In this document: in pieces, positions 1 through 28,097 of the stretch | How positions within the stretch are numbered: the stretch's first letter is position 1 | Layout: each line of letters opens with the position of its first letter | From: Rhizoclosmatium globosum | Lineage: Eukaryota; Chytridiomycota; Chytridiomycetes; Chytridiales; Chytriomycetaceae | Reading direction: 5' to 3' | DNA length: 41,482 bases | NCBI GenBank assembly: GCA_002104985.1 | Contig: MCGO01000281.1 | Span: forward strand, 1-41,482 | Notes under the pieces: model-generated | Databases searched by the model: none | What the model saw: the letters and a program-made list of their open reading frames with translations, nothing else | What the model was told of the DNA's origin: nothing | Translations under genes and position numbers: made by a program

Positions 1-2957
1 CACGGACTTGGTAACATGTTTTGTGACAATTGAATCTTGCGCTGACGTAATCTCTCAATCAAAAAAAGGCACATGCTGTATACCAGCCACATGTGCAACT
101 GAGGATGGACTTCTGGAACTCATCCCGATGGATGTGGAGCTACAATCAATTGTGATAACAGAATCTAGATGTATGTGCCAGTTAAGTGCGCTTTCTGTTT
201 TTGATGTCGGAGATCACATTTTTTTTGACCGAGACGTGTCTAAACATGTGGCTAACCTCAAAAAATCAGTTTCAACGACGCTGGATGAAAACTGCAGGTG
301 TGGTGTAAACAATATTCCATGCGGAAAAGGTGCTATTTGCAAAGACGACAAGTGCACATGCCCATCCCACTTCCATAACCAATGCAATTACACTGTGGTC
401 TCCCGACGCCGTGTGTTCCTGTGATGGAGGCTCCTTCCATCTTGTACCACCGGCCACTTTTGCAACGAGTTTGGGAACTGCGCCTCAAAGCCTTCGTGTG
501 GGGATGATAGTTGCCTGACACCAGCTTGTGGAACAAGCGAATGCGCAACTCATTTTATACAAATAATACCCGACAAAAGATTGTTTCTGTACCGCTGCAA
601 CTCAATTTGCTCCTTATTTCAATTCGAGTCTGCCATTGGTCGGTGCTGTACACCACAGACTTGTGCAACGGGAAATTGGAACTCTGGAAGTCACTCTGAC
701 GGATGTGAGGTACTATCAACTGCGATAATCAAGATTTACCTGCGTGCGCAAGTAAGTGCGCTTTCTGCATTTTCCATTTCATTGAGATGCTACTAACTAT
801 TCACTAAATTAAGTTTCGACGACTCTGTACGAAAATTGCAGATGCGGTGTAAACAATCTCAATGCGGAATAGGTGCTATTTGCAAAGACGACAAGTGCAT
901 GTGTCCATCCACATCCATAACCACTGCATTACACTGTGGTCTCCCGACGCCGTGTGTACCTGTGACGGAGTTTCCTCCTTATCTTGTACTTCAGGCCACT
1001 TTTGTAACCCGTTCGGGAACTGTGCATCAAAGCCAAATTGTGTGGACGATATCTGTCTCGCCCCGCTTGTGGATCAAACGAATGTGGAACCCATGCTGGT
1101 ACTACGCAAATCCAATAACAGATTGTTTCTGTACAGCTACAAACTCAATTTGTACATTGTTCAATTCTGTATCTTCCGCTGGTCGCTGCTGTACACCACA
1201 GACTTGTGCAACGGGAAATTGGAACTCTGGAAGTCACCCTGACGGTTGTGGAGGTACTATCAACTGCGATAATCAAGATTTACCTGCGTGCGCAAGTAAG
1301 TGCGCTTTCTACTTTTGAATTCAACCTAAATCCGGCTAACTTAAACTCACAAAAAACAGTTTCGACGACTCTGACCGAAAATTGCAGATGCGGTGTGAAT
1401 AATATTCAATGCGGAAAAGGTGCTATTTGCAGAGACGACAAGTGTCTTTGCCCTGCTTCCTCAACCACCACAGCTTTATCGTTATGGACCAAAGATGCGC
1501 AGTGTTCATGCGATGGAGGAAGCTTTCCCTCTTGTTCTTCCGGTCATTACTGTAATCAATTTGGAAACTGTGCGTCACAAGCAAACTGTGGTGACGACGC
1601 CTGTGTTACTCCTGCTTGTGGAACAAATGACTGCAAAATCCATTTTGTGACAAAGGCTTGCCTATCAGCGACTGCTTCTGCACTGCGCCAAACAATGTGT
1701 GTTCTCTGCTTGAGACGGCGAATGGTAAGAAAAGACTTCACATGCATCTTGTACTTAGCAGATACATTACCAGGTCAATGTTGCGCTCCAAAAACGTGTA
1801 CATCGGAAAATTGGACCTCAGGCAACCACGATGACGAATGTGGGAATATTATCAACTGTGATAATCAGAATCTAGATGCCTGCGATGGTGATATTTTTTG
1901 TTACAATCATTGCTTTATTGGCTAATTTCAGTTTCCAGCATCAGGAACGCCTCTGGAAGCCAAATGTCGATGCGGGAAAAACAACCTTGAATGTGGCGCC
2001 GGTGCAGTCTGCAAGAATGATATGTGTCTTTGTCCAGCTTCTTCGAGGACAACGGCTTTGTCTCTGTGGACAACTGACGCTCTGTGTTCATGTGACGGAG
2101 GAAGCTTTCCCTCTTGTTCTTCTGGCCACTACTGTAATCAATTTGGAAATTGTGCGTCAAAAGCAAACTGTGGTGATGATTCTTGCGTAACGCCTGCGTG
2201 TGGAACAAACGACTGTAAAATTCATTTCAACGATAAGAACCTGCCAATAAGCGACTGCTTTTGTACTTCCCCAAATAGTGTTTGCTTTTTACTTGGAACA
2301 GATACTGGTAAATATCGCATTTGGGTGACGTTTTTGGTTGACATAAATTAGGGAAATGTTGTGCACCAAAGACTTGTAAATCGGAAAATTGGACTTCAGG
2401 TAACCACAATGACGGATGTGGAAATATTATCAACTGTGATAACCAGGCACTACCTGTGTGTGATGGTAAGTTAGGTGTTGTTGTTTGTGTCCTAATCTCT
2501 GTTCCAAGTTTCAGCAGAACATCTCAAAACTGAATGCCGATGTGGTATGAACAATCTTCACTGTGGACAAGGTGCCATTTGCAAAGACAATCAGTGTATG
2601 TGTCCATCGAATTCTATCACAACGGCTCTGTCTCTATGGAGTAATGACGCGTTATGTTCTTGTGATGGCGGAACGTTGCTTCAGTGTCCAAGTGGGCACT
2701 ACTGTAACCAATTTGGAAATTGTGCTTCAAAGGCTAATTGCGATTGCGACGACGACACCTGTGTTACTCCTGCTTGTGGAACAAACGACTGCAAAATCCA
2801 CTTTAATGACAAAGGCTTGCCTATCAGCGACTGCTTCTGCACTGCGCCAAACAACGTGTGTTTCCTGCTTGGGACAGCGAATGGTAAAAAACGACCACTT
2901 CCGTATCTCAAACTTAAAGATACATTACCAGGTCAATGCTGTGCTCCGAAAACATGT
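1..2957 (+). pseudogene. Cysteine-rich repeat surface protein, 5' portion, cut by retrotransposon
   Basis: This is an array of homologous units of about 500 bp, entering from the left edge. Each unit encodes a Cys-rich module: CRCG..NxxCGxGAxC, a C-x-CP step, TTALSLW, CSCDGG, GHYCNxFGxC, TPACGxxxCK, CFC, then CCxPKTC, SGxHxDGCG and INCDN. Short introns separate the modules and split them before CCxPKTC (for example GTAAAT...TTAG at about 2309-2351). Units can be recognised ending near 170, and spanning about 285-760, 830-1300, 1370-1890, 1930-2465 and 2515-2957; the last is cut by the LTR at 2958. The first units carry several 1-2 base indels (near 105, 150, 435 and 1645) that break the frame, while the units at 1930-2465 and 2515-2957 read cleanly. 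The modules look extracellular (EGF-like spacing in places), but I recognise no named family. The start codon lies outside the window. Confidence 0.75.
2954..2957. repeat. Target-site duplication, left copy (ATGT)
   Basis: ATGT directly precedes the 5' LTR, and the same four bases follow the 3' LTR at 12169-12172. Collapsing the element and one ATGT rejoins a PKTC-K-SEN reading that matches the sister repeats of the host gene. This fixes the element boundaries. Confidence 0.9.
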
Positions 2958-3224
2958 TGTGGAAGGGGAAATTAGTAGGAAAACGCGTCTTTGAGTTTGT
3001 ATTATTGTTTATATTACGTAATGTGAGTAGTAATAGAGTTTGTTTGTGCCAAATTGTGCAAGTGACGTTGAGAGGAGAGGAGTCATAGCTGACCAGGACA
3101 CAGAGTGTGTGACTGTTACCCTCGGTTCAGCTGCTCTGTTCGACTCGAGAATGGTACGATCTCTCTTGTATCCGAGTGAAGGCCTACGTGTGCGCTGCAA
3201 GAGAGCCTTTTCTACCGTTCCGCA
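2958..3224 (+). repeat. 5' LTR (267 bp)
   Basis: Starts TGTGGAAGGGG and ends CCGTTCCGCA, with the TG...CA termini of LTRs. It matches 11902-12168 base for base as far as I can compare by eye. An A/T-rich TTTATATTA stretch near 3009 could serve as a TATA element (inference). The last 122 bp are duplicated directly downstream (3103-3374). Confidence 0.95.
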
Positions 3225-3374
3225 GATGTGCCTTCTACGAGTGTGTGACTGTTACCCTCGGTTCAGCTGCTCTGTTCGACTCGAGAATGGTACGATCTCT
3301 CTTGTATCCGAGTGAAGGCCTACGTGTGCGCTGCAAGAGAGCCTTTTCTACCGTTCCGCAGATGTGCCTTCTAC
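3103..3374 (+). repeat. 136-bp tandem duplication spanning LTR end and leader
   Basis: Two copies (3103-3238 and 3239-3374) run from GAGTGTGTGACTG inside the LTR, through the LTR end (CCGTTCCGCA), to the leader bases GATGTGCCTTCTAC. The right LTR has no such extra copy. The duplication therefore joins U5-like LTR sequence with the first 14 bases of the internal region. Confidence 0.9.
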
Positions 3375-4265
3375 CAGATGCGCTCGTTCCCGCTCCGTAC
3401 CGTCTCTCTGCTTCGGTTCTCGCCAGTCCCTCGGTTGGTTTACGCTGGATTCAAGCCTTGCTGTGCCGGAAGCCACGAGCTAGTGAAGTGTTTTCGCCTT
3501 TTCATGTCTGTCCAACTCTCTCCACAGTCGCTCTCGCAGCTCCGCCAACAGCATTGATCTCTAGTTTCGATTGCTACAGCCTTGCAGCAACGCAGCTCCT
3601 GGATTTGATTCGGAACGCACGGAATTGGCATACTACATGCACTACTCAACTCCACCATTCAGCTTGCACTTGAAACCAGCAACACCACTGATTACTGCCA
3701 ACGAGGATCGAAGTCGAAGACATTACCGAGCATTGGAGGAGCCATCTTGTACTGGATTGTTGTTTCGACTGCACTCTCAACTCTGTTTCCGTTCCTCGCA
3801 ACCTGCCACGCAGCAAGCTCGAACGCATAACGCAGACACAAGACTGCTTCAACAACCACAACTGCCAACATCACAATCACAACAATGGGAGCAGGTTGGG
3901 ACTTAACTCCACAAGTCGAGGCATCGCGACTTGTGAACTGCCATATTCTAGGAGCGGGGTGTCCAACTGGGTTTGCCATCTTCGATGGCAGTGCCGCAGT
4001 AAGTCCTATCAGCGGATCATACACTGGACTTTGACAACAGTGTGTGGCCGACGGCTGTCAGTCCGCAAACGCATCAAACGCATTCACAGTTGGATCATGG
4101 ATGGGTTTTATTGAATTCTATTCTTTCCCTTTCTCCCCTCCTCTCTTCAGCCTCTTTTATTACTGTTTATCTTTCCCTTTCACGGTGGTTGGTGGTCTTC
4201 CATCAATCTCCACATTTTCCCAATTGTGGAGAGTGGACTCGGGGCAGCGGCCTTCTTTTTCTTGC
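3375..4265 (+). other. Long untranslated leader of the retrotransposon
   Basis: There is about 0.9 kb without a convincing gene; the short open frames here have no recognisable motif. At about 4109-4185 the DNA becomes strongly pyrimidine-rich, followed by GGTGGTTGGTGG near 4185. The same order recurs before the pol ORF (7201-7310). No TGG-starting tRNA-complementary primer site follows the LTR. Confidence 0.6.
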
Positions 4266-4423
4266 CTGCCCCTGGACTGCAAACCACCGTGCTCACGCTG
4301 TATTGTTTTCAAATCCCAACCCGTGACTATTAGGTGATTGTCTTTCTTAATAAACTGCCCCTGGACTGCAAACCACTGTGCTCACGCTGTATTGTTTTCA
4401 AATCCCAACCCGTGACTATTAGG
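4266..4423 (+). repeat. 69-bp direct duplication just before gag
   Basis: Copies 4266-4334 and 4355-4423 differ at one base and are separated by 20 bp containing AATAAA. The first copy ends ATTAG followed by GTGATT, and the second ends ATTAG. A GT...AG interval 4334-4422 is therefore exactly one repeat period (89 bp), like an intron whose removal leaves a single copy. The gag ATG follows at 4430. Confidence 0.85.
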
Positions 4424-4429
4424 CGTACA

Positions 4430-5935
4430 ATGCAGGCTCAACAACTCCTCCAAATCATCTCCGCACTCTCTGGTGTCTCTCCCAACCTGTCCTCCGATCC
4501 TGACGAAGCCGATTTCATTGGTCGCTTCGACGGTCTTGAGGTCAAACAGTTCACCAGAACTATGCGGAAGCTCTATGCCTCAGTCATTTCCAGAGGCGGT
4601 TCAAACGTACCTTACATTCACATTGACGACATTTGCGAGAACCACCTTGGTCCCAGTGTCAAGGATCATGTCAAGAAATGGCTCAAGGACCAACTCGATC
4701 CAACTGCCTTTGCCGCGGACCCGCACAAGGAGCGATTGCGAAAACACACATTTGCAGCCTTCTTTGAGTGGTTGGAGGACCAGTATATTGGACTGAATGG
4801 CGACTCAGTTGCAAATAAGTTCGTTGCTCTCTATTCAGCTGCCAGCACGTGGGACGAATGGAGTGTCAATTGGTTGAGTATTGTCGCGCGAATCAAGTCC
4901 TTGATTGCAGACGCTGCTGTTAAGTCCGATTTTCCTGAGGGAGAACAAGTGAAACGTGTCTTGACAGCAATGCCTACTACCCTTGCCTCAGATGTCCGTC
5001 GCAGAGTGTATGATGAACGTCAAAAAGCCTATGAGAAAGATCTTAGGGATGTGTTGGAGAAGGGGGCAGTCACCACAACCAACAAGCTTCCAGACATGCC
5101 TAAGTCGTTGGATGTCGAGCCTTCGTCCCTATCGGAACTCGATGTCGCAATCAAGAAAGCTTTTATGGAATCTCAACGTCTCTCCTCGTCCCCTCGACGA
5201 GCAATGCCTTCGATTGAAACCCAACAACCAACCAACCAACTTCCCGCTCCTACCCTGTCCTCCATTTCGACTCCTCCTGTTTCGCTTAAGACAAACGTCG
5301 ATGAGAAAATCCTCGCAGAAATTCGAGAGGGTTTCAAAGGCCTTTCCCTTACGCTCCAACAGTTCCAAAGTGTTATGCAAGGTTTTGCCAACCAGACAAG
5401 TCAATTCAAACCCCCGCCTTTTGTGGATTCACACGCTTTTGAAAAGGTCAAATTCTGTGTTTGGTGCGCCTGCGACCACAATTTGGGACAGTGTATGCGT
5501 TTCTTTGACGACGTCTTCAAGCGAGGCATCCCTGTTGCTCGTAATATGCACGACAATGGTAAAGTCTGGAAAATTCGGAGGAACGCCGATGGATCATCTA
5601 CCTTTCTGGAACTTGTCCCTCTCAGCAAGGAAGGACTCAGTTCATCAAGCCCTCCGACGATCCAGCGTGGCAACAGGAAGCAAAAGCGTGCAAGGATAAA
5701 GCATCAAAGAACTCGTCTGTTTCGATGCTCATTCAGGACGCTGAGGGTGGTGGTTTTGTTGGGGATTCATTTGCGTTTACTGTTGACACATTCACTCTTG
5801 GAACCAAGACTCCAGCGGCTCCTCGCGACGTCCCAGCTCTGTCTGTGTCTGACATTAATCAATACGAAGTTCTTGCCGTCGTTTCGAATTTCCCAAGTGA
5901 ATCCGGATCTGATTTCAACGTTCCAGTCTCTTTAA
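4430..5935 (+). CDS. gag: Retrotransposon Gag-like protein
   Basis: Capsid/nucleocapsid-type protein that would assemble the particle and bind RNA. The ATG at 4430 (MQAQQLLQ) follows the duplicated leader; an in-frame GTG at 4334 lies inside the repeat and is not preferred. Residues 1-240 are a helical, capsid-like region (DADFIGRF-like start, WLEDQYIGLN, WLSIVARIKSL). A Pro/Ser linker follows, then a compact zinc knuckle, C343-x2-C346-x3-H350-x4-C355, one residue shorter than the usual CX2CX4HX4C. The tail (KVWKIRRNADGSSTF) matches fungal gypsy gags in layout. Beyond about residue 400 this frame turns Arg/Leu-rich and looks non-coding, because homologous coding continues in the -1 frame (next entry). 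The biologically meaningful product therefore probably ends or shifts near 5615-5640. Confidence 0.8.
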   Translation: MQAQQLLQIISALSGVSPNLSSDPDEADFIGRFDGLEVKQFTRTMRKLYASVISRGGSNVPYIHIDDICENHLGPSVKDHVKKWLKDQLDPTAFAADPHKERLRKHTFAAFFEWLEDQYIGLNGDSVANKFVALYSAASTWDEWSVNWLSIVARIKSLIADAAVKSDFPEGEQVKRVLTAMPTTLASDVRRRVYDERQKAYEKDLRDVLEKGAVTTTNKLPDMPKSLDVEPSSLSELDVAIKKAFMESQRLSSSPRRAMPSIETQQPTNQLPAPTLSSISTPPVSLKTNVDEKILAEIREGFKGLSLTLQQFQSVMQGFANQTSQFKPPPFVDSHAFEKVKFCVWCACDHNLGQCMRFFDDVFKRGIPVARNMHDNGKVWKIRRNADGSSTFLELVPLSKEGLSSSSPPTIQRGNRKQKRARIKHQRTRLFRCSFRTLRVVVLLGIHLRLLLTHSLLEPRLQRLLATSQLCLCLTLINTKFLPSFRISQVNPDLISTFQSL

Positions 5936-7194
5936 TTGTTGACAAAGTTCGCCAACAGCGTAACGAGTTCTCACATGGTGAAGTCACTTCCGCTCCTGTT
6001 CTTCGTGGCCGTACTCGTGAAGATTTGGACGTTTCTTGGCCTCCAGCTCAAGGTCAACTAAATGTTCGTGTATCTCGCAAGCCAGCCACTCCCCGCGAAT
6101 CTGCTGCTCCCTATGTTCCTCCCAAGTCAACCAAGGATCCAAACGCACCTCGCCGCTCTTCTGAAATGGCCACTGATGTCGAGTCTCCTCAGACCATTCC
6201 CATGGATCAGGTACAGCGTTTGATTCAGGAAGCGTTGGACAAGCGTAGCAAGGAGTTAGGGGGTTTACAAGGGGAAAAACAGGCACTTGAAAAGGGGAAC
6301 AAGGCTGTGACGTCAGACGTACCAAAAACAACAGGAAGTCCCTTGAAAGAAGTAGAGACGGTGGACACTGCGAAGGAAGAAGCGGCAAAGGCGCAAAAGA
6401 AGTTAGCAGCTGAGAAGAAACGATTGGAGAAAGTCGAAAATGAGAAGAGGTACGAGTTAGTTAGCGAGGATTTGGGAGGGAGGTTGTTGCAGATGGATGC
6501 TCCTCGGATGTCTGTTGCTGAATTCCTGACTGCCGCTCGCGGCGTACGCTCTTTCATCCATGAAAAGATTGATCCCAAGTCTGGTGCTCCTCTTGTTGCT
6601 ACGTTGTCTGTTGCTGCCGGGTGTGCAGGTCTTGTCGAAGGTCTCGACACTCAAGTCCTGGCCCTCTTCCAGGAGTTTGTTCGCTCAAACTCTTCATCTT
6701 CTTCTCCATCTGGTGATATCCTGGCTTCTCTGGTTGTCGACAATTTCCGTACCGCAGTGGTCATTTCAGAGTGCCCTCGTCTGGACGAAGTCCTTGTCGC
6801 TATGCGTGTGTTTGCTCGCGACGTTCTGCTTGATCAAGGTTCCCAGATCAATGTCGTTATTCTCAGTCTAGTTCGTAAATTTGCAAGACATATCTCAGTC
6901 CAACAAGATGCTTTCATCAACATGCGCAGTGCACAAGGCGCGGTTCGCAAGCTTTCGGGTCTCGCGCTAGTTCCTTTGGACGTCTATGGTCATAAATTCT
7001 TGACGCCTTGTTTCATCTTGGATGATACGGACGAAGCTGCACCTTTCGACTTGCTCTTGGGAATGCCTTTCGTCAAACATGCACGTCTTGCTACCTACGT
7101 TGACGAGAAGGACAATGCCACTTATGCCACTTTTATTGGTCCCAAGGACGGACAAAAGTATGTCATCCAAACTTCAGGTGGTTCTGCAGCTTAA
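5725..7194 (+). CDS. Retrotransposon protease ORF (coiled coil plus retropepsin-like domain)
   Basis: Frame is -1 relative to gag. The frame is open from 5563, so the first ATG at 5725 may not be the true beginning; a gag fusion by frameshifting is likely. From the ATG, residues about 1-150 are a variable Pro/Arg linker. Residues about 160-250 are a Lys/Glu-rich coiled coil (KEEAAKAQKKLAAEKKRLEK). Residues about 255-350 are a conserved helical segment. The retropepsin-like aspartic protease has its active site at LLDQGSQINV (Asp370) and a hydrophobic FDLLLGMPF near the end. DQG replaces the usual DSG/DTG. This domain would cleave Gag and Pol. The ORF stops at 7194, so pol is not a simple continuation. 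Confidence 0.75.
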   Translation: MLIQDAEGGGFVGDSFAFTVDTFTLGTKTPAAPRDVPALSVSDINQYEVLAVVSNFPSESGSDFNVPVSLIVDKVRQQRNEFSHGEVTSAPVLRGRTREDLDVSWPPAQGQLNVRVSRKPATPRESAAPYVPPKSTKDPNAPRRSSEMATDVESPQTIPMDQVQRLIQEALDKRSKELGGLQGEKQALEKGNKAVTSDVPKTTGSPLKEVETVDTAKEEAAKAQKKLAAEKKRLEKVENEKRYELVSEDLGGRLLQMDAPRMSVAEFLTAARGVRSFIHEKIDPKSGAPLVATLSVAAGCAGLVEGLDTQVLALFQEFVRSNSSSSSPSGDILASLVVDNFRTAVVISECPRLDEVLVAMRVFARDVLLDQGSQINVVILSLVRKFARHISVQQDAFINMRSAQGAVRKLSGLALVPLDVYGHKFLTPCFILDDTDEAAPFDLLLGMPFVKHARLATYVDEKDNATYATFIGPKDGQKYVIQTSGGSAA

Positions 7195-7364
7195 GGTTGC
7201 TGAGTTTTGAGTTTTTCTTTCTCTTTATTGGGATTTCTCGTCTTTCTTCTTTCTTTCCGTTCTACTTCTATTCCTTTCTCTTATTTCTTTGGTGGCTGGT
7301 TGGTTGCATTGGCTCGGAGTTCTGCCACACAACAGTTTGGGACTTGTGATTTTTTCTTCACCCC
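7195..7364 (+). promoter_or_regulatory. Pyrimidine-rich leader upstream of pol
   Basis: After the protease stop, the top strand is T/C-rich for about 90 bp and then reads GGTGGCTGGTTGGT near 7290. This copies the layout seen before gag (pyrimidine tract, GGTGGTTGGT, duplication, ATG). I infer a second transcription start or pol leader; no TATA box is obvious. Confidence 0.4.
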
Positions 7365-7504
7365 ATCTGTGTGGTTTCGCGACTCTTGGTTCAATCAACT
7401 GACTGACGCTCACCTGTTTGATTTAGGTATGTCTTTGAATAAATCTGTGTGGTTTCGCGACTCTTGGTTCAATCAACTGACTGACGCTCACCTGTTTGAT
7501 TTAG
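7365..7504 (+). repeat. 62-bp direct duplication just before pol
   Basis: Copies 7365-7426 and 7443-7504 appear identical and are separated by 16 bp (GTATGTCTTTGAATAA). GTATGT at 7427 is a consensus fungal 5' splice site. The second copy holds CTGACTGAC and ends TTTGATTTAG, a good 3' splice site. The GT...AG interval 7427-7504 equals the 78-bp period, so splicing would remove one copy. Pol starts at 7509. Confidence 0.85.
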
Positions 7505-7508
7505 ATCC

Positions 7509-10500
7509 ATGAAGCTCGCTGCCATACTGAAAACCGCCTCCTCTCACTCGCTCTGGTGTGAGGAGTCATGGGATGACGTTCGCTCCTACGTCGATACCGG
7601 TTCCAAGACGTCGTCATTTGAGTTGCCAGACGAGTACACTGGTTGGGACGCTTCCCAATTCAGACGCTCCTACTGTCGCTCAGTAAACCGTCGTCTTCGT
7701 CATCAAGGATACCTCTCTGCCTCTTCCGGTTTCCTTGGTGTCATGTCCGTTGCCTGCAACATGGACAATCAAGTACTTTTGGAAAAAGCACTTCAACTCC
7801 GTTACCACGGCGTTGTCGACTCATGGGCGGATGCGAGGATGCTGGATTGGTGCATGGATCAATTACCCGATTCAAAAGGGGTTTCGTTGTCTCCGGTTGT
7901 CGACGTCTTCACAATGTACAAACCGGCAGCGCGAAAAGTCCGTCCGGCAACGGAAATGCTCCCTGATGGTGTTGCTCCATCCCCGTGGGTCAATTCTTCT
8001 CCCGAAACTGTTGAAAAGTCTCGTCTCTCGGATACCCATATTGAAACCTTGTGTAGTGAGTCCAGTTGGCTTCATGCCGAGGAAGGCTCCTTGTTGCGCG
8101 AAGTCCTGAGAGAGAATGAAGATGCCTTTTCGTTCACTCTCAAGGAACGCGGTCGTGTCAACCCCGATGTTTGTGAACCCATCAAGATTCATACTGTCGA
8201 ACACAAGGCGTGGAAATTCAAGCCTCGCAGGATTCCTTATTCTCAACTTGAAAAGCTCATTTCCTTCCTCAGGGAGAAGCTTGATTGTGGTATTATGGAG
8301 CCCTGTTTTGGCCCTTATTCTGCGACTTTCTTTATTGTCCCTAAAAAGGACGGTGGTATTCGTTTCGTTCAAGACTTACAACCCCTCAATGCCGTGACTA
8401 TTCGAGATTCTGGTGTTCCACCAGGTTCTGAGGATGTGGTGCAGCAATACGCTGGGCGGGCCATCTATTCACCTTTAGATTGTGCATCGTTTTATGACCA
8501 GTTTCTCATTGATCCGGCTAGCAGGGATCTCACTGCCTTTGCTACTCCTCTTGGCCTCATGCGTATGGTTACTCTCCCTCAAGGTTGGACAAATTCAGTC
8601 GCTATTGCTCAACGTGCCTCACTCAAGATTTTGGCACCTTTTATTCCAAAGTTGGTGTCTCCTTTTGTGGATGATTACGTCTTGAGAGGTCCTACTGTTT
8701 ACGAGGCTGACCATTCGGAGGTTTCCCCTGGTATTCGTCGTTTTGTTCAAGATCACATCTTCGATATTAGATCAGTCCTAAAACGCATCATCGAATGCGG
8801 AGTTACGCTATCTGGGGTCAAGTCTAGGTTTTGTGTGAGGCAGTGTGAAGTTTTGGGTCATCTTGTTGGGGATTTTGGTCGCTCTCCCGGTTCAAAAGCA
8901 GGCAGGCTTGCAACGTGGCCGGACTTGAACACAGTTCCGGATATAAGGTCCTTCCTGGGCCTTGCTACGTTCTTTCGCAAGTACATTCCTAAGTTTGCCC
9001 TTAGAGCTGACGTCCTCTACAAAATGCTGAAGAAAGGTGCGGTTGTTACTGATTTCTGGGATGCTGTTCAAGCTGCAAAGCGCGATCTAGTCAATGCTAT
9101 CACGTCTAATCCAGTCTTGTCTCCAATTCAATATGGTGTGGGTTCTGGTCAGATTTCTGTTAAGTCCGACGCTTCTCCAGACGGTTGGGGCGGTTGGGTC
9201 TGTCAAGTCAATTCAGAAGGTTTCCCTCACCCTGTTGTCTTTGTATCTGGCAGGTGGAACGATAGAGAACGCAAGTATAGTCAGCACAAGCGAGAACTTT
9301 TGGGTACGCTCAAAGTCCTTCAAGCCGTTCACACTTACGTTTGGGGTTCCGACTTCGTATTGGAGACAGACGCGAAAGCATTGATTGGGTCTATTGACAA
9401 GGTTGCTACTTTGGATGAGGCGGAGAAACGATGGCTCCTTACTATTCGAGCATACACACCAAGATCTGTTGTTCACATTGCCGGGAGGAGTAACATTGTT
9501 TCTGATGTTATGAGTCGTACTGAGTTCGGTGAAACGGACGATGCCGGTGATGTCGAAGACCATGTGGAGTCTGTGCTGGGGTTGAGTTTAGCCTTGGAAC
9601 GTAGTCTCAAGGTTCTCTGTTGGAATGTCAATAGTGTAAACAGTGCGGTGACTAAGTCACCAACAGTTGTCAAAGAGCTGGTGCTGTCGCATGACATCAT
9701 ATTCCTTCAAGAAACACGCATGGGTCGTCGTTTGTTTGATCGTGCCTTTGGGTTTGAGTTTCAGCTTTCACATTTTGCGTACTCGGTGGATTTTCCTGTT
9801 GAAAGAGAGGAAGATGGGAAACCGGTGCGTGGAGCTGCTGGACTTGGGCAAAATGGTGTGGCGGTGCTGATTAGGCGTGGCCTCTTCAGTTCAAATGAAC
9901 CAGATTCGGTAGAGTATTTGTTCCATGGTTGGGATGCATTCGACATGGAGGGTCGGTTCCTCGCTTTGCGTTTCGGCAAGGTTGTCGTTTGTTCCATCTA
10001 TTTCCCTTGTGTTGTTGAGTCACGTATGCATCGCTTACCTTACAAAATTCGTTTCCAGAAAGCCGCTTCTGACTGGTTGATAGAGTGCAAGAGCCAAGGC
10101 CTGACAGTCATCGCTGGTTGCGACTTCAATGTTGCGTCCTGTTTGCTTGATATTCACCCTAACTTGATACCCAAGATCCGTTCTGGGTTCAGCGCGGGTG
10201 AGCGTCTGTGGTACTCTGGTCTCCTATCTCACTTCCAGGATTCTTTCCGGACTTGTCACCCTTCCACGGTGTCCTTCACAACGTGGTGGCGGCAGACTCG
10301 GAAGAATAATGAAGGGTTTCGGTTCGATGGTGTTTTGGTTTCATACGATGTTAACGTTCTTGCAGCAGCCCATCTTGACTATGTAACCGCGTCTGATCAC
10401 ATTCCAGTTTCAGTAGAACTTTCCTTAGTTCCTGTTGTCAGTGTCTGTCGGTGGACATTGGATGACGTTTCGACTTGGGTTGCGGATGGGGGTGCATCCG

Positions 10501-11864
10501 AGATCCACGTTCGTCGAAGATGCGAGTTTTTGGGTTTGTCTGGACGTTTGGGCATGCTTTTCTGGTTTCTCACTCTTGGTACTTGGCCCTCTGGTGCTCC
10601 GGCAGCTATTCTTGCGTCGCTGGAAAGACAAGTTACTCTGTATCAGGTGATTGAAAATATGCTCTTTCGAAAGGCCAACGAAGGGACTCGTGCGCCTCGT
10701 CGTGTGGTTGGCTTGGCGCGTGAAAAGCTTTTCTTGTTGAAGGAAGCTCATGAAGGTTCTGGAGGTGGACATCGAGCAGTCCATGCAACAGCAACGAAGT
10801 TATTACAACGGTATTGGTGGCAAGGAGTCTGGCAGGATGTAACCCTATTCTGCAAGACTTGTGATTCTTGTCAACGTTCTAACCCTATTCGTTATCATGA
10901 ACCTCTCCAAACTATGTGGGGACGACTCCCGCAAGGATTATTTCGCCGCTGGTATTTGGACCTCTGTACTATGGAGGGAACCAACCGGTACTTTGTTCTT
11001 GCCGTCGAGGAAGTTTCAGGTTGGGTCGAAGGATGTGTTCTTCGCCGGAAATCTTCTGGACCTATAATCAGGTGGATTGGCAAGGAGATTTATCAGCGTT
11101 ATGGCGTTCCCTTTGAGTTAGTAATCGATGGAGGGGAGTTAGATGGTAATGAGTTGAAGAACGAGGCTTTGAGTCTAGGTTTTGATTTGCGGGTGGTAAT
11201 GGCGTACTCCCCGCAAGCAAACGGTAAGGTTGAGCGACATAACCAACCTATTATTGATGCAGTGCGGAAAATGACTGAGGGTAAACGAGGGGATTGGTAT
11301 CGGTTCTTCTCTATGGCACTCTGGTCTATTCGCGTGACTATCAATAGAGCTACTGGATACAGCCCTTACGAGCTCTGTTTTGGGCAGGAGCCAGTACTTC
11401 CAATGGAATTCTTGATTGAGTCTTTTGCTGTCATTGAGTGGAGGGACATGACAACTCAGGAGTTGTTGGAAGCTAGGTTCAGGATCTTGGAGCGTAAACC
11501 AGAGGATTTGCAGTTGGCGCGGGAACGCATTGAGCGGGCTCGTGAACAACGAGCAAACCAGTTTAATCGGGAGCATCGTTTGAGACCAGATTCTGAGTCC
11601 ATTGAGGAGGGGGATATGGTCATTGTTCGCGATTCAAAACTTGACACGATTGCCGGTGGAAAACTTCGTTGGCGTTATTTTGGACCATTCTGGGTTTTTG
11701 CGAAAGGAGAAAGCGGATACTGGTTGACAGAAATGGATGGTACTCGGATTCGGAAGCCATTTCAAGGATCTCGCGTGAAGCTGTACAGGAGAAGGGAGGA
11801 TTATCTCGGTCATTTCCCTCTGGAGCTTTTAGACGAGGAGTTGGATGCATCTGGTGTCGTCTGA
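7509..11864 (+). CDS. pol: Retrotransposon Pol: RT - RNase H - APE/EEP endonuclease - integrase
   Basis: 1451 residues, uninterrupted; ATG four bases after the duplication. RT: D324 in the LDCASFYDQ block, LPQGWTNS at 356, FVDD box at 386-389. RNase H: D554 (KSDASPDGWGGW), E596, D621, D666. EEP endonuclease, about 700-970: WNVNS with N706, LQETR with E735, IYFP, GCDFNVA with D872 and N874, RFDGVLVS with D940, SDHIP with D963 and H964. These are the ExoIII/APE1 signature residues. Integrase: H-H-C-C zinc finger about 1080-1125 (GGHRAVH...CKTCDSC), catalytic D1151, D1207 and E1242, then a GPF-containing C-terminus (KLRWRYFGPF). No chromodomain. The separate reading frame and own leader imply independent expression from gag. 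An EEP domain is normal in LINE elements, not in LTR elements with an integrase. Confidence 0.93.
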   Translation: MKLAAILKTASSHSLWCEESWDDVRSYVDTGSKTSSFELPDEYTGWDASQFRRSYCRSVNRRLRHQGYLSASSGFLGVMSVACNMDNQVLLEKALQLRYHGVVDSWADARMLDWCMDQLPDSKGVSLSPVVDVFTMYKPAARKVRPATEMLPDGVAPSPWVNSSPETVEKSRLSDTHIETLCSESSWLHAEEGSLLREVLRENEDAFSFTLKERGRVNPDVCEPIKIHTVEHKAWKFKPRRIPYSQLEKLISFLREKLDCGIMEPCFGPYSATFFIVPKKDGGIRFVQDLQPLNAVTIRDSGVPPGSEDVVQQYAGRAIYSPLDCASFYDQFLIDPASRDLTAFATPLGLMRMVTLPQGWTNSVAIAQRASLKILAPFIPKLVSPFVDDYVLRGPTVYEADHSEVSPGIRRFVQDHIFDIRSVLKRIIECGVTLSGVKSRFCVRQCEVLGHLVGDFGRSPGSKAGRLATWPDLNTVPDIRSFLGLATFFRKYIPKFALRADVLYKMLKKGAVVTDFWDAVQAAKRDLVNAITSNPVLSPIQYGVGSGQISVKSDASPDGWGGWVCQVNSEGFPHPVVFVSGRWNDRERKYSQHKRELLGTLKVLQAVHTYVWGSDFVLETDAKALIGSIDKVATLDEAEKRWLLTIRAYTPRSVVHIAGRSNIVSDVMSRTEFGETDDAGDVEDHVESVLGLSLALERSLKVLCWNVNSVNSAVTKSPTVVKELVLSHDIIFLQETRMGRRLFDRAFGFEFQLSHFAYSVDFPVEREEDGKPVRGAAGLGQNGVAVLIRRGLFSSNEPDSVEYLFHGWDAFDMEGRFLALRFGKVVVCSIYFPCVVESRMHRLPYKIRFQKAASDWLIECKSQGLTVIAGCDFNVASCLLDIHPNLIPKIRSGFSAGERLWYSGLLSHFQDSFRTCHPSTVSFTTWWRQTRKNNEGFRFDGVLVSYDVNVLAAAHLDYVTASDHIPVSVELSLVPVVSVCRWTLDDVSTWVADGGASEIHVRRRCEFLGLSGRLGMLFWFLTLGTWPSGAPAAILASLERQVTLYQVIENMLFRKANEGTRAPRRVVGLAREKLFLLKEAHEGSGGGHRAVHATATKLLQRYWWQGVWQDVTLFCKTCDSCQRSNPIRYHEPLQTMWGRLPQGLFRRWYLDLCTMEGTNRYFVLAVEEVSGWVEGCVLRRKSSGPIIRWIGKEIYQRYGVPFELVIDGGELDGNELKNEALSLGFDLRVVMAYSPQANGKVERHNQPIIDAVRKMTEGKRGDWYRFFSMALWSIRVTINRATGYSPYELCFGQEPVLPMEFLIESFAVIEWRDMTTQELLEARFRILERKPEDLQLARERIERAREQRANQFNREHRLRPDSESIEEGDMVIVRDSKLDTIAGGKLRWRYFGPFWVFAKGESGYWLTEMDGTRIRKPFQGSRVKLYRRREDYLGHFPLELLDEELDASGVV

Positions 11865-11901
11865 CGAGGGCGCCAGACCGATTTCTTTGGGGTTTGCCAG
11901 C

Positions 11902-12168
11902 TGTGGAAGGGGAAATTAGTAGGAAAACGCGTCTTTGAGTTTGTATTATTGTTTATATTACGTAATGTGAGTAGTAATAGAGTTTGTTTGTGCCAAATTG
12001 TGCAAGTGACGTTGAGAGGAGAGGAGTCATAGCTGACCAGGACACAGAGTGTGTGACTGTTACCCTCGGTTCAGCTGCTCTGTTCGACTCGAGAATGGTA
12101 CGATCTCTCTTGTATCCGAGTGAAGGCCTACGTGTGCGCTGCAAGAGAGCCTTTTCTACCGTTCCGCA
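11902..12168 (+). repeat. 3' LTR (267 bp)
   Basis: Same length and, by eye, same sequence as 2958-3224. It is preceded by CTTTGGGGTTTGCCAGC, which is not a clean polypurine tract; the nearest purine run (AGGAGAAGGGAGGA, about 11788) lies within the pol coding end. Confidence 0.95.
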
Positions 12169-12172
12169 ATGT
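12169..12172. repeat. Target-site duplication, right copy (ATGT)
   Basis: Matches ATGT at 2954-2957. It marks the right edge of the insertion, after which the Cys-rich host exon resumes. Confidence 0.9.
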
Positions 12173-14767
12173 AAATCTGAAAATTGGACCTCGGGTAACC
12201 ATGACGACGGATGTGGAAATATTATCAATTGCGATAACCAGAATCTGAATCCCTGTGATGGTATTTTATTTGATTCAAATTTTAACTTCATACTCAAAAT
12301 CAAGTTCAGGAGAAACACCGAGTGGTATATGTCGATGCGGCTCAAAAAATACAGTTTGCGGTGTAGGTGCATTATGCGAGAATGACGTCTGTCTTTGCCC
12401 GCCTTCTTCGACTACAACAGCTCTTTCACTTTGGGCAAATGATGCAACATGCTCGTGTTCCCCAAACGGCGACAACAAGTGCTCCACTGGACATTATTGC
12501 AACAAGTATCAATCTTGCTCGTCCGTACCAAATTGTGAGTACAGCAGTTGCCAAACACCTGCTTGCGGTTCGAAAGAGTGCAAATTCCACACAGACGGAG
12601 CCTTCTTCAGTTCAACCTGCTTTTGTCCTTCTGGCAGCACTTGTGTTACGGATTCTGATTTTCCAGAAGGGAAATGCCGTGTTCCAAAAACTTGTGCGGA
12701 TTTGGGGGCAACGTCCGGTAAACATGATGATGGATACGGGCACACTTTAAATTGTGATAATTTGGATTTACCAGAATGCAATGGTAAGATTATATTAGGT
12801 ATGAAATGATATCTCATCGAATTTTTAGAGCTGGGATTACCTCTTTCGTCCCAGTGCCGTTGCGGGCCAGATAATGTACTATGTGGTTCAGGAGCATATT
12901 GTTTGCAGGGGAAATGTACATGCAACGTATTTGACACCGCAACACCCGTTCCAACTTTGTGGTCCAAAGATGCCGAATGTTCTTGTCCCTACGGGTCAAT
13001 TTTTAGCGATAGGCTGCTTTGTTCCACTGGCTCGTACTGTGACAGCTTTGGAGTCTGTGCAAACAAACCTGACTGTAATGACGAAAGCTGTGCCCTTCAT
13101 CCATGTGAAACGGACGAATGCGGTTTCTTGGTGACCCTCGGCATACCTTTGGAGGTATGCCCATGTCCTAAAAATCAACGTTGCTTTAGCTCCCTTGCTA
13201 ATGTGTCCTATACAAATGGTAACCAAGTTTGTTCATTTGAAAGTATTGAATTCTAACGCTTTGCAGGAAAATGCTGTGCACCAAAAACATGTTCTGATTT
13301 CGGCGGCGGCGACCATTTTGACGGATGTGGAAATACAATAACCTGTCCGTATCCAATTTCGGAAACTATATCAAGCACTTCGGCATCACAATCCTCTTCT
13401 GTTACAACAGAATCGTTTGGTCCAACGATCTCAACGACTCTGATTTCAAGCGTGACAGGATCTGCAACAACGCTATTTCCTTCGTCTATTCAAACGGCAA
13501 CATTACCATTACAAACATCAACATTCTCGTCTGCCAATACATCCGTTTCTTCGAATACAAGTCCCACTGGTTCTGTTTCTTCGAATACAAGTCCCACTGG
13601 TTCTGTTTCTGCCAGTACATCTGTTTCTACGAATATAAGTACCACTGGTTCTGTTAGAACAAATGCAACAATGCTGATATCTGGCACTTTGACTTTGACT
13701 TCAGTTGGTACGACTCGCTTTGCTGAATATAGCGAAACTGCGACCAAAACGTCTGAAATTGGTTCAACTAAAACTATCCTAGCTGCCACACTCACTACAG
13801 TTCCAAGTTGTGTAACCAATATCCCTCTGAGCACAATTAATGAGATTGCGCTTGGTCCAATACCGGCTGAAAACTCAATGCAATTGTATAATGGAGACGT
13901 TGCGGCATATATTGCAGCCTTATTGAAGCTTCTTCCATCGTATGGAAGCACTATCAACCAACTTGGATCGTCATTATTTTATATTCCGGAGCCTATTGTC
14001 CCTGGTCAAGAACCTTCGAGGTTTCAGGCAACACCGTTCCTCGCTGGTTCAAATTTAGTTGCCGTTTTGATCTCATCGTCACAATATGAGGTAAGTGATT
14101 TTATTGACGCGTTTCCCATAACTCACCAAATTCACAGTTTGTTGGGGAACCAACAATTCAAACCTACTTTGGGTTTTCTTGCAACTTGGCAATCAAGGAA
14201 TCTCCTTTACCAAGCATCAGCGGCGTTGGATTCAGCTACGTGATTGATTCAGTTCAAGTCAAGAGTGAATGGTTCGCCATGTTCTTGACACCAGACGGCC
14301 AGCAGCTCGTGTTTACGATCAACACCAACCATTCAGTTATTGCATCACTGACGTTTCCTCTGAAAGTAATTAGGAAAAGGCAGTACCAATCAAATGGCGG
14401 GTTTGTAGTTTTGAATGGAGTTTGGCCGATCAACGTGTCGACACCTTTTTCGACTGCCTCTGCTCCAACTTCAACTGCGTTGTCAACTCGACAACAAGTA
14501 GCCTCATCAACTTCGACATTATATGTGCCTTCTTCTACGAATGCCTCTTCAACCTTTCCAAGAACTGATAATCCGCCACGTGTGTCGTCGACAACAATTT
14601 CCTCGTCGACAGTCACCTCTAATTCAACAGCAACAATGACGCAAAATCGATTGGAGACAACGACGTCGTCTCGTCCAACATTGAATGTAATCATCAACGC
14701 TGCTGCAAACAAAAACCTGGAACTCACGATCAGTCTACTCTTTTTCGTTTCTGTTATGCTGTTTTAA
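12173..14767 (+). pseudogene. Cysteine-rich repeat surface protein, 3' portion with mucin-like stalk and GPI-type C-terminus
   Basis: Continues the host gene after the element. Exons: 12173-12260, 12310-12783, 12829-13218, 13267-14090 and 14138-14767; all introns are 45-50 bp GT...AG. It encodes the end of the interrupted module and two more diverged Cys-rich modules (CRCGSKNTVCG; CRCGPDNVLCG). Next comes a Ser/Thr-rich stalk with short repeats (SVSSNTSPTG, about 13546-13650), then a folded-looking domain of about 200 residues (AAYIAALLKLLPSYGS... GVGFSYVIDSVQVKSEW). A second Ser/Thr stalk follows, and a hydrophobic end (LELTISLLFFVSVMLF) typical of GPI-anchor signals. The overall design fits a fungal adhesin or wall protein (inference). 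These exons read cleanly, but the retrotransposon separates them from their promoter and start, so I class the gene as broken. Confidence 0.8.
13546..13655 (+). repeat. 30-bp repeats coding SVSSNTSPTG
   Basis: GTTTCTTCGAATACAAGTCC-type units occur twice almost perfectly, flanked by degenerate copies. They encode Ser/Thr-rich stalk sequence likely to be O-glycosylated. Confidence 0.7.
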
Positions 14768-15003: not shown

Positions 15004-17971
15004 ATGACATCATACGATTTCTCACAAATTCTATTACCAGGCAATTGCTATGTTTCCAAGTATTCTATCGGATATCCGATCACCGACTATGGTTATTCCT
15101 GTGCTCCTCATTTCTACTGTCCCAATTCTACGTCTTCTGTTATCCAATCTCTACCTCAGTTATGCACACCAACTGCAGACTGCGTCGGCACGCGTCTAAA
15201 ATCCAAGCCGTGTTTGGTGAGTAGCTTATCTTTCCGGGCCTTGCGTTAATCAACCATCTCCATAAGCCACAAGGTCCGTACGAACCTCAACTTTGTCCTG
15301 CAGGATCCTATTGCCCAAGTCCAACTCTAATGCTACCCTGTCCGAAAGGCTCGTTTTGCCCCGTTGGAACAATAACCCCAATCAACTGTCCCCTCCTTTC
15401 CACATGCCCAGAATCCACCACAACTCCGACATACTACGGTGGCATCATCTATTGCGCGATCATAGACGTTGTCCTTGTCATTTTGTATTTGATTGCAAAG
15501 CATTATCCGCAACCACTTCAACGTATCAAGAAAGTTTCCCACGAATGGACTCTCCATGACATGCCAAAAAAGCGCGTAGATTCCACGATCGTTTCGATAG
15601 CTGCTGCTTCGAATGATAATGAGGAGTCGCGCCCAAGTCTCGCGTACCTCTCCAGGTTCATGCAAGGGTTTCGCGCCGCCCTAGAAGGCAAGAATGTGTT
15701 TATGGACTTTGAGTTTGAAGATCTGGGACTCACGTTGAAGAAGCCGGCTGGCAAGTGTGTTTTAAAAGGTGTGAATGGGGAGATTCGGAGCAAACGATTA
15801 ACGGTACCAAGAACCACTTCTTTCCAATATATTTTTTATTCATAAACTTTGGTTTTAGGCTATTATGGGACCTTCAGGGTGTGGGAGTGAGTATTGTAGG
15901 TTTAAAACGCAACCACTAACTGTGATTTACAGAAACAACATTCATGAACGTACTGATGGGAAAAGTCACAAGAACTTCAGGTAGTTTATTGATTAATGAT
16001 CAAGAATGTGAAATGTATGATTTTCCAATTTTAAGTTGACTTCCAACTGAAAATCAGTTTAGGTCAAAGTACAAAAAAGTTATTGGCTATGTTCCACAAG
16101 AAGACATCATGTTGCGCGAGCTTACCGTCCGCGAGAATATATTCCACTCTGCTCGCGTACGATTGCCTCGAACTTGGACAGATGTGCAAGTGAACGAATA
16201 TGTGGATGAAGTTATCGAGGTTCTAAGGTATATGGTATTGAGCCAATTTTTATGGCTCTGCTAAACTTAATGTTGCAGTTTAACTCATGTACAACACTCT
16301 CTGATCGGATCTGAAAATGAGCGTGGCGTGTCAGGAGGTCAAAGGAAACGCGTTAACATTGGAATGGAGCTTGCAGGAGGTATCTATTCAACGTTAAAAG
16401 ATATAATTTAACATAAATATAGTTCCGCTGGCTCTATTTCTTGACGAACCGACCAGTGGGTAAATGAATCTTTTCAAAAACTGTAACCAAATTAACGCCA
16501 ACATATGCATCAGACTCGATTCAACATCCTCCCTCAAAGTAGCCGAGATTCTCCGTAAAATCGCGTCTCTTGGTCTGACAATTGTTGCTGTAATCCATCA
16601 ACCGCGTTACGAGATCTTCCAACAATTCAACGATATTCTTATGCTCGTTCCCGGGGGAAAAACTGCATATATTGGCCCGACAGCGCATGTTGTCGAGTAT
16701 TTCAAAGAGCTCGGATATACTTTCGACGCACTTGCGAATCCAGCTGATATCTTGATGGATATTTTAAGTGGAAAGGGTGTACACTCGTGTGGTGAAAATA
16801 TCACGCCAGATCGGCTGGTGGAACTTTGGGAGTCCTTTGGGGTTACATGGGTGGCAGGATGTTCGCTTGAAGAGGGGGGAATTGGTGAAGCAGACAGCGG
16901 ACGCAGTGTTGAGGAGTATGAGGCGTCGATTAGGGATTTGGAAGAGATTGTTGTGAAGAGGGGTGCGCCGTTATGGAAGCAGATTTTGCTTTGTCATAAC
17001 AGATACATTGTGCAACAGTATCGAAGAGCAGGGAGTTTAGTGATTGAAGTTGTGGTCGCATCGTTGGCTGGGTTGTTGGTAAGTCTTATATGCCGATTTA
17101 TTGGAAAGTAGTAAATAACGCAACTTGTCTCGGTAATAGATGGGAGTTGCCATTATGGGACAGAAGGGACAAATCTTCAAAGGCATCTACGTGGAGCCAT
17201 ATTCTGGATTGACGCCTTCCACTCTTTTGTGGATGATTCCTCAGCTGGGTAATAACAAAATGAAATAGAAAGCATTACTGAATCACTCTACTACATCAGG
17301 TCTCCTTGTTGGTATGGCGTGTGGTCTTGCCGGAGCTCCAGCAGGCGTGAAAGTATTCGCCGAAGAGCAAACGGTGTATTGGAGAGAAGCCGCAAATGGC
17401 CACGGCAAGCTTGGATATTTCACTGGAAAAGCTGTCGCTTCTATTTATCGTTTCATTTTGAGCTCTTTGCACTTTGCTTCGATTTTCATCTTGCTTGGAA
17501 AGCCAACTTCGTCGTTCGGATTCATTTACTTGGTAATTATGCTGCAGTTTTGGTGCGTTTATGGCATGGCTATGTTGGTAAGTATGCTGGTTCGTCGCGA
17601 AGATTCCGCATTACTGGCAGTCGTGATTTGTCTGTTCTCAGCTGTGTTCTGTGGATGTAAGTTGCTTTTCAGTGTACGCAAATCCTAACCTCAAAAATTC
17701 TTAAGATGGTCCATCGATCAAGGATAGCTATAGCATGGGAATAACATTTCTATTCGCGATTTCCTATAATCGTTGGGCAGTTGAGGCATGGTTTTCTCGC
17801 GAACTTAGCATATTTGATGGAGTTTATCAAATTTCGGAAGCAGCAGGTTACTATGGTTATGTTTTGAACAAGGAAGCAATGAATCTTGGGTTATGTTTCT
17901 TGATTGGATTGGTTCTGAGAGTGATTGCGTTTGGCCTTATGGTTCTGTTAAACCGAGACAAGCAAAAGTAG
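15004..17971 (+). CDS. ABCG-type half transporter with Cys-rich N-terminal head (ABC1)
   Basis: Eleven exons: 15004-15216, 15267-15803, 15859-15886, 15933-16014, 16063-16227, 16279-16379, 16423-16459, 16514-17078, 17140-17248, 17300-17656, 17706-17971. These join in frame to 819 residues. The N-terminus (1-125) is Cys-rich and extracellular-looking (YSCAPHFYCPNST, CPAGSYCPSPT, CPKGSFCPVGT), followed by a membrane segment at about 127-148. The nucleotide-binding domain has Walker A GPSGCGKTT (254-262), Q-loop YVPQEDIMLREL, signature VSGGQRKR (about 359), Walker B ALFLDEPTSG (about 379) and H-loop VIHQPRYEIF. A C-terminal ABC2-type membrane domain follows. The layout matches the fungal/plant ABCG24/ABCG28-like family; the substrate cannot be read from sequence. 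The start is MTSYD, conserved in the paralogues; no classical signal peptide is seen. Confidence 0.93.
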
Positions 17972-18087
17972 TATTTTCCTCGTTTCCTCTCCTTATTTTT
18001 CCTTTTTCCATTGATTAAATGCTTCTTGTTCCTTTTCCTTTCTCTGTTTTCATCACGTGAATTGGATTGTGATCAGAAAAGGAGACA

Positions 18088-19823: not shown

Positions 19824-19874
19824 ATTATACATTTCCCATTTCTATTATCATGTATCTCCTTATTCCCAAGTAGC

Positions 19875-19880
19875 AATAAA
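19875..19880 (+). terminator. AATAAA poly(A) signal after LRR1
   Basis: AATAAA lies about 52 bp after the LRR1 stop at 19821-19823. Confidence 0.5.
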
Positions 19881-20073
19881 ATTCCATACTCATGACATTT
19901 AAGATAATTCTCATGTTCAAGATAATTCTACGACTGAATATGATGATTTCGTCCCATTGAAAAACATGGGCCTTATGATTCGTATCTTCTATTTATCTCT
20001 ATTTTCTTCGAGCGTTAATGAAACGTGATGGTACGAACCTGAGTGTCTCTAAAATTTTTCTAACTGAAAACAA

Positions 20074-21364: not shown

Positions 21365-21579
21365 TTGCGTACCATGCAAGAAGGAGAAATAGGGCTGGTC
21401 CCATAATTGTAATTCATATTCTGTTAGATTAAAGCTATATTCTTTTAACCAAATCAAAATATTTTAATTGCTTACGTTCTATCATTATGAAGTGTACAGT
21501 TTTTTTATTGGGATGGGATTCTCATGATTCTCGAGGTGATTTGCGGATTCTCTCCACAAGAAGTACTGAAACGCAGCAG

Positions 21580-24500: not shown

Positions 24501-24621
24501 TTACGGATACGTGTTAGGCAAAGAAGCTATGAACCTCGGCTTATGTTTTTTTATTGGTTTAGTTCTCAGAATGATAGCGTTTGCACTGATGGTTCTTTTG
24601 CACCGGGACAAGCAAAAGTAG
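21580..24621 (+). CDS. ABCG-type half transporter with Cys-rich head (ABC2)
   Basis: Eleven exons: 21580-21792, 21861-22472, 22523-22550, 22604-22685, 22742-22906, 22954-23054, 23104-23140, 23192-23747, 23797-23905, 23951-24307, 24356-24621. These join in frame to 841 residues. All ten introns sit at the same codon positions as in ABC1 and ABC3. It carries the Cys-rich head (CPAGSYCPDPT, CPSGYYCPVGT), a TM segment, Walker A GPSGCGKTT, signature VSGGQRKR, Walker B ALFLDEPTSG and the ABC2 membrane domain. Its cytoplasmic linker before the NBD is 25 residues longer than in ABC1. An in-frame ATG upstream (21487) exists, but paralogue alignment favours MTSYDL at 21580. The transported molecule is unknown. 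Confidence 0.93.
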
Positions 24622-28039: not shown

Positions 28040-28097
28040 ATAACTTTACTAGATAGGTTAGGTGGAGAGAACTGGTGTTTTGTGATATTTTACTTCG

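What the first reader, a model, noticed from the sequence alone, without database searches (positions are those of the whole stretch)
9606..10400. Complete APE1/ExoIII-type endonuclease domain inside an LTR-retrotransposon Pol that also has a DDE integrase
Between RNase H (last Asp, D666) and the integrase zinc finger, pol residues about 700-970 contain the EEP signature in order and spacing: WNVNS, LQETR, IYFP, DFNVA, RFDGVLVS, SDHIP. All catalytic residues are intact, in one uninterrupted frame with RT and integrase. EEP endonucleases are the cutting enzymes of LINE elements; Ty3/gypsy elements use integrase. Having both could mean integrase-independent, nick-primed insertion as a second route, abasic-site processing of cDNA, or removal of RNA primers. 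I know of no described LTR lineage with RT-RH-EEP-IN, but cannot search.
Basis: partly seen in the sequence, partly recalled or inferred. Interest (0 to 1): 0.92.

Follow-up and report, generated by a model that had tools for sequence, protein, structure and literature searches.

The report
Retrotransposon carrying its own exonuclease III
A mobile element in a likely fungal genome carries, in one protein with its reverse transcriptase and integrase, a complete exonuclease III-type DNA-repair domain that is predicted to mend the element's own DNA copy before integrase would insert it.

The parts
2954..2957 (.). 5' copy of the 4-bp target-site duplication, ATGT
2958..3224 (+). 5' LTR, 267 bp, TG..CA, identical to the 3' LTR
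4334..5935 (+). ORF in the gag position (no Pfam match)
   Evidence: gag by position only
5725..7194 (+). ORF with a protease-like motif DQGS at 6832-6843 and LLLGMPF further on; no Pfam match above cut-off
   Evidence: motif read by eye
7509..11864 (+). pol ORF, 1451 aa, order RT - RNase H - EEP - integrase
8337..8861 (+). reverse transcriptase (RVT_1, pol 277-451)
   Evidence: RT-RNase H nearest to Ty3 4ol8, E 1.8e-31
9150..9455 (+). RNase H (pol 548-649)
9606..10421 (+). exonuclease III / APE1-type EEP domain (pol 700-971)
10734..10886 (+). integrase zinc-binding domain H2C2 (pol 1076-1126)
10959..11234 (+). integrase catalytic core stretch from D1151 through D1207 to E1242 (34 residues between the last two)
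11902..12168 (+). 3' LTR, 267 bp
12169..12172 (.). 3' copy of the target-site duplication, ATGT

Best explanation
This is a Ty3-like LTR retrotransposon whose Pol carries a complete exonuclease III-type domain between RNase H and a DDE integrase, and that domain likely repairs the element's own cDNA while integrase would do the inserting. Shown: the domain, its family, its catalytic residues, its recurrence in many elements, purifying selection, and LTR ends with 4-bp target duplications. Inferred: Pol is packed with the RNA into the particle; there the domain cuts at abasic sites and cleans damaged or blocked 3' ends of new cDNA, so that fewer copies are lost or integrate into themselves; integrase then joins intact LTR ends to target DNA. 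The element would thus bring along a base-excision-repair step that other retroelements take from the host.
For: Family: TIGR00633 xth over the curated cut-off, also for 7 of the 9 further proteins tested; fold matches to AP endonucleases; catalytic residues complete in 17 of 21 copies read and in P0001 and P0012. Kept by selection: pooled dN/dS 0.17, 9 non-synonymous of 24 changes, p 2e-5; one pair per family, chosen by hand, 9 of 19, p 0.003. Recurrent: 47 of 60 integrase zinc-finger loci, plus P0001, P0002 and P0012 elsewhere. Integrase does the insertion: 8 of 10 copies with perfect 4-bp duplications. Precedent: knock-down of APE1 raised HIV-1 autointegration and lowered integrated DNA (PMC2644782, passages); short-patch base-excision-repair genes promote HIV-1 after reverse transcription (PMC5741268, passages).
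Against: No activity, expression or packaging data. Relatives P0003-P0006 show no EEP match and 13 of 60 integrase loci have none nearby, so it is dispensable in some. Conservation is weaker than in RT (dN/dS 0.17 against 0.03; family C301 has 5 non-synonymous and 4 synonymous changes). C301's domain falls under the curated cut-offs (69.9 of 99.05 bits; 22.1 of 24.5 bits). In the window F replaces the W of the conserved GWRID motif of ExoIII. In the cited HIV work MLV and ASV did not depend on the APE1 complex, and APE1 nicking has also been proposed as a threat to HIV-1 cDNA; the passages of PMC5741268 name no AP endonuclease.
Confidence: 0.5

Rival explanations
1. The domain would process replication intermediates rather than damage: removal of primer-derived RNA or trimming of 3' tails at the LTR ends by the 3'-exonuclease and RNase H-like activities of ExoIII (recalled), so that integrase gets correct ends.
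For: Same enzyme family; in class A the domain lies directly between RNase H and integrase.
Against: Class B elements hold it in front of RT instead; RNase H and integrase already process primers and ends in relatives without EEP (general knowledge).
Confidence: 0.2
2. The domain would nick target DNA and allow integrase-independent, target-primed insertion, as in LINE elements.
Against: Intact integrase residues; LTR ends and perfect 4-bp duplications in 8 of 10 copies with both ends found, one imperfect and one without a match; xth-type rather than LINE-type by the searches made. Truncated copies were not surveyed.
Confidence: 0.07
3. The domain would act mainly as a DNA-binding or tethering module of the integration complex, its catalytic activity being unimportant.
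For: It adjoins integrase in class A and in the chromovirus-like class; the deletion copy C54 keeps a gag start, EEP and integrase only.
Against: Catalytic residues are invariant across three deep groups.
Confidence: 0.1
4. The domain is a passenger without benefit that was picked up and is being lost.
For: Relatives without it exist.
Against: Present in three deep groups in and outside this genome and under purifying selection.
Confidence: 0.04

Closest known systems
Ty3/gypsy LTR retrotransposons (Metaviridae), e.g. yeast Ty3
   Same: LTRs with TG..CA ends, short target duplication, RT and RNase H nearest to Ty3, HHCC and DDE integrase near PFV and Ty3 integrase, order RT-RH-IN
   Different: a complete ExoIII domain of about 270 residues between RNase H and integrase, or in front of RT in the sister clade
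Exonuclease III / AP endonuclease family (xth, ExoA, APE1)
   Same: fold, catalytic residues and curated profile score
   Different: it is a domain of a retroelement polyprotein, about 33% identical to the nearest free enzyme found
APE-type LINE (non-LTR) elements
   Same: an EEP nuclease encoded with a reverse transcriptase
   Different: LTRs, RNase H and DDE integrase of Ty3 type; domain of xth type; integrase-like insertion ends
Gypsy elements with captured enzymes: KnitGypsy-Dnmt3 (PMC5890265, passages) and orchid Gypsy with an AlkB RNA demethylase (PMC9289625, abstract and two sections)
   Same: a host-type nucleic-acid enzyme taken into a Gypsy element and kept
   Different: a DNA-repair nuclease, inside Pol, in several families and two lineages
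HIV-1 use of host APE1 in the SET complex (PMC2644782, passages)
   Same: an APE1-type enzyme proposed to act on retroviral cDNA before integration
   Different: there a host protein, here encoded in Pol; the role here is inferred

Membership tests
Ty3/gypsy LTR retrotransposon | two LTRs with TG..CA ends and a short target-site duplication | tested here: met
   267-bp identical LTRs, ATGT on both sides
Ty3/gypsy LTR retrotransposon | Ty3-type RT and RNase H | tested here: met
   Pfam matches; Ty3 4ol8 E 1.8e-31
Ty3/gypsy LTR retrotransposon | order RT - RNase H - integrase with HHCC and DDE residues | tested here: met
   the EEP domain stands between RNase H and integrase
Ty3/gypsy LTR retrotransposon | gag and aspartic protease | tested here: inconclusive
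   ORFs in the right places, no Pfam match above cut-off; DQGS motif by eye
Ty3/gypsy LTR retrotransposon | tRNA primer-binding site (TGG..) after the 5' LTR | tested here: inconclusive
   window has GATGTGCC after the LTR; C397, C301 and C412 have TGG within the first four bases; no tRNA comparison made
Exonuclease III / APE1 family | curated xth profile score | tested here: met
   TIGR00633 117.8 of 99.05 bits
Exonuclease III / APE1 family | catalytic Asn, Glu, Tyr, Asp-x-Asn, Asp, Asp-His | tested here: met
Exonuclease III / APE1 family | four-layer EEP fold | tested here: met
Exonuclease III / APE1 family | AP-endonuclease and 3'-exonuclease activity | not testable with these tools
   needs protein
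APE-type LINE (non-LTR) element | no LTRs, no integrase | tested here: not met
   LTRs and DDE integrase present
APE-type LINE (non-LTR) element | LINE-type endonuclease | tested here: inconclusive
   profile and PDB sequence matches are xth/APE1-type; no tree with LINE endonucleases was made
Chromovirus (second EEP-bearing class: C43, C366, P0012) | chromodomain after integrase | tested here: inconclusive
   Chromo 30.1 bits in P0012; none listed for the C43 and C416 frames

The most novel reading that the evidence does not exclude
LTR retrotransposons have taken up a cellular exonuclease III at least once, kept it active, moved it within Pol (in front of RT in one sister clade, between RNase H and integrase in the other) and hold it again in a distant chromovirus-like lineage: an unrecognised class of LTR elements that carry their own base-excision-repair step and so need less from the host to complete and protect their cDNA before integration.
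Probability: 0.5. Interest if true: 0.85.

Novelty: new variant of a known kind. Interest (0 to 1): 0.75.

Why it matters
LTR elements and retroviruses rely on host repair for parts of the road from cDNA to provirus. Elements that encode an APE1-type nuclease in Pol make that dependence testable: what does the nuclease supply that hosts otherwise lend? The change of place between sister clades, and the second lineage, show that Pol can accept a repair enzyme and that selection keeps it. For annotation, an EEP domain next to an RT is readily taken for a LINE; in this genome that would misname most integrase-bearing elements found (47 of 60 loci).

Tried and rejected
Chance or mis-read frame: rejected; single open frame, curated cut-offs passed, identical second copy.

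One-off insertion of a host repair gene: rejected by recurrence and by P0001, P0002 and P0012 from other records.

A LINE nested in an LTR element: rejected for the window and for the loci with RT, RH, EEP and IN in one frame; 30 of the 47 EEP-IN loci list the same open-frame length for EEP and IN (read off; that it is the same frame is inferred).

Recent gene from a prokaryote: the nearest free proteins found were archaeal-type ExoIII at 32-33%, and 27 prokaryotic ExoIII stand apart in the tree. Donor not identified. No eukaryotic APE1 and no LINE endonuclease was in the tree.

One capture or two: unresolved. The retroelement EEPs lie on one side of a branch only at 78/89, while the RT tree separates the two classes, with EEP-less proteins near both.

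Virus collection: the window domain alone matched 3 stretches, none a relative; alignment A1 gave 10 loci with ExoIII-like genes, not followed. BFVD fold search gave mainly giant-virus EEP proteins, best query TM 0.73, not followed. The second structure job was not used.

No LINE endonuclease is among the 50 rows shown; that is no proof of absence.

Saturated comparison: for C416 against C366 synonymous sites are saturated in RT, EEP and IN, so I quote no ratio.

Full report
What is there. The window holds a 9.2-kb LTR retrotransposon at 2958-12168 on the plus strand. Its LTRs are 267 bp, identical, with TG..CA ends, flanked by the 4-bp duplication ATGT. By eye the two flanks continue one another as coding sequence of a cysteine-rich host gene. 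The ORF 7509-11864 (1451 aa) has RVT_1 at 277-451, RNase H at 548-649, Exo_endo_phos at 704-964 and Integrase_H2C2 at 1076-1126. The integrase core has D1151, D1207 and E1242, with 34 residues between the last two; these three, both His and one Cys of the zinc finger are invariant in the 11 rows of alignment A3, and the other Cys nearly so. RT plus RNase H is nearest to the Ty3 enzyme among solved structures, integrase to PFV and then Ty3 integrase.

Recurrence in the genome. The window's genome is held as G000, 56.9 Mb in 420 contigs. The domain as query gave 44 matches. By coordinates (combined), 47 of 60 integrase zinc-finger matches have an EEP match within 6.5 kb upstream on the same strand: 37 in the order RNase H-EEP-IN, 3 EEP-IN and 7 EEP-RNase H-IN; 12 have RNase H-IN only and 1 has neither. 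These are copies, broken ones included, and lower bounds by the tool's own statement. The fetched loci show two orders in elements close to the window's: class A, RT-RH-EEP-IN (window, C13, C397, C90, C387 and one copy on C383), and class B, EEP-RT-RH-IN (C368, C412, C146, C347, C411, C301 and a second copy on C383, here C383b). A third, distant class (C43, C324, C372, C416, C366, C86, C124) has EEP in front of IN and, where they were matched, RT and RH in front of EEP; in C43 a zinc knuckle, RT, RH, EEP and IN share one frame of at least 2734 aa.

Outside this genome. P0001 and P0002, from ENA records without an organism name, are class B. P0012, from a JGI record and named exodeoxyribonuclease III there, is 3338 aa with zinc knuckle, RT, RH, EEP, IN and chromodomain. 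P0009 is a partial protein of Rhizoclosmatium sp. JEL0117, 51% identical over 35% of the domain query; read side by side, its N-terminal part resembles the pol N-terminus of the C397 family. The host is therefore likely a chytrid near that genus, which is inferred. P0003-P0008 and P0013-P0015 list no EEP domain.

Trees. In the RT-RNase H tree (19 rows) classes A (100/100) and B (100/99) are sisters (94/97), with EEP-less P0003-P0006 around them; the third class lies far off (100/100), among EEP-less P0007, P0008, P0013 and P0014. In the EEP tree (38 rows, 27 of them prokaryotic ExoIII) A and B again form one clade (100/99). The simplest reading is one capture before A and B parted, then a change of place in Pol, or an ancestor with two copies. 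Whether the third class got its domain separately is not settled (78/89). C146, C301 and P0012 are long branches.

Selection. Between near copies in six families the EEP domain has 9 non-synonymous and 15 synonymous differences (dN/dS 0.17). Against neutrality p is 2e-5; with one pair per family, chosen by hand, 9 of 19 changes are non-synonymous and p is 0.003. The first figure shares rows between pairs. RT, RNase H and IN are lower (0.03, 0.04, 0.09). Families C368 and C416 had no EEP difference; C301 had 5 non-synonymous and 4 synonymous.

How it inserts. Both outer ends were located in ten copies. Eight have perfect 4-bp duplications: window ATGT, C13 CCAG, C397 ACGT, C54 CCGC, C412 CCCC, C301 ACGC, C383b CAGC, C416 CGCT. 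C411 has ACAT with one extra base on one side; C146 has no match. A solo LTR on C364 matches at three of four bases. For the other fetched copies the ends lay outside what I could fetch or were not found; in the C90 family the three 3' ends all stop at CACA. This is what a DDE integrase leaves and speaks against a nick-primed route as the usual one. Truncated copies were not surveyed.

How it works, as I judge it. ExoIII/APE1 enzymes cut at abasic sites and clean 3' ends (established for the family). Reverse transcripts made in a particle are hard for host repair to reach, and damaged ones may be lost or integrate into themselves. In HIV-1, knock-down of APE1 raised autointegration and reduced integrated DNA, although MLV and ASV did not depend on this complex and APE1 nicking had earlier been seen as a threat to the cDNA (PMC2644782, passages). 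Short-patch base-excision-repair genes promote HIV-1 after reverse transcription; the passages name glycosylases and polymerase beta, no AP endonuclease (PMC5741268, passages). A Pol-borne ExoIII would supply such a step inside the particle. Both positions in Pol fit, since either would bring the domain in with Pol. Packaging, cleavage and activity are inferred. Trimming of primers or ends is the main rival.

A natural deletion copy. C54 is an internal-deletion relative of C397: 832 bp from the 5' end (98.4%) joined to the last 2834 bp (99.5%), with a 985-aa frame that runs from a gag-like start into EEP and integrase and lacks RT and RNase H, with identical LTRs and its own duplication. Such a copy was mobilised, presumably in trans; whether its product works is unknown.

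Known or new. Nine searches aimed at such elements and one on repair and integration in an open-access library showed no LTR element with an EEP domain in their listings, several of which were cut short. I read passages of PMC3248453, PMC5348765, PMC10799480, PMC9926174 and PMC5890265, abstract and two sections of PMC9289625 and the outline of PMC12440569. Subscription papers, preprints and Repbase were not searched. Captured enzymes in Gypsy elements are known (KnitGypsy-Dnmt3, orchid AlkB), so this is a new variant of a known kind, with an unusual enzyme and a wide hold on one genome.

Noticed in passing
window 3103-3374: A 136-bp tandem duplication (3103-3238 and 3239-3374) covers the end of the 5' LTR and the start of the leader; the C13 copy was not checked for it.
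   Followed up: no
window 3225-3240: After the 5' LTR the window element reads GATGTGCC, without the TGG of a usual tRNA primer site, while C397 has TTGGTGCC at the same place. Priming may be unusual.
   Followed up: partly
window 7365-7504: A 62-bp direct repeat (7365-7426 and 7443-7504) between the protease-like ORF and pol; the stretch 7427-7504 starts GTATGT and ends TTTAG, like a small intron (read by eye).
   Followed up: no
window 6832-6843: The protease-like motif reads DQGS instead of the usual D-S/T-G.
   Followed up: no
L011 (C54), oriented 3744-7394: Internally deleted element with a gag-like start fused in frame to EEP and integrase, 985 aa, identical LTRs and its own target duplication.
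   Followed up: partly
L017, L018, L019 (C347, C146, C411): The long LTRs of this family contain repeated units of about 64-72 bp in shuffled order.
   Followed up: no
window 137-2916 and 12170-13400: Array of cysteine-rich repeats of a host gene family, one copy of which the element has split (reading by eye).
   Followed up: no
window 15010-28043: Three tandem copies of a gene that looks like an ABC transporter, about 71-94% alike (naming by eye).
   Followed up: no
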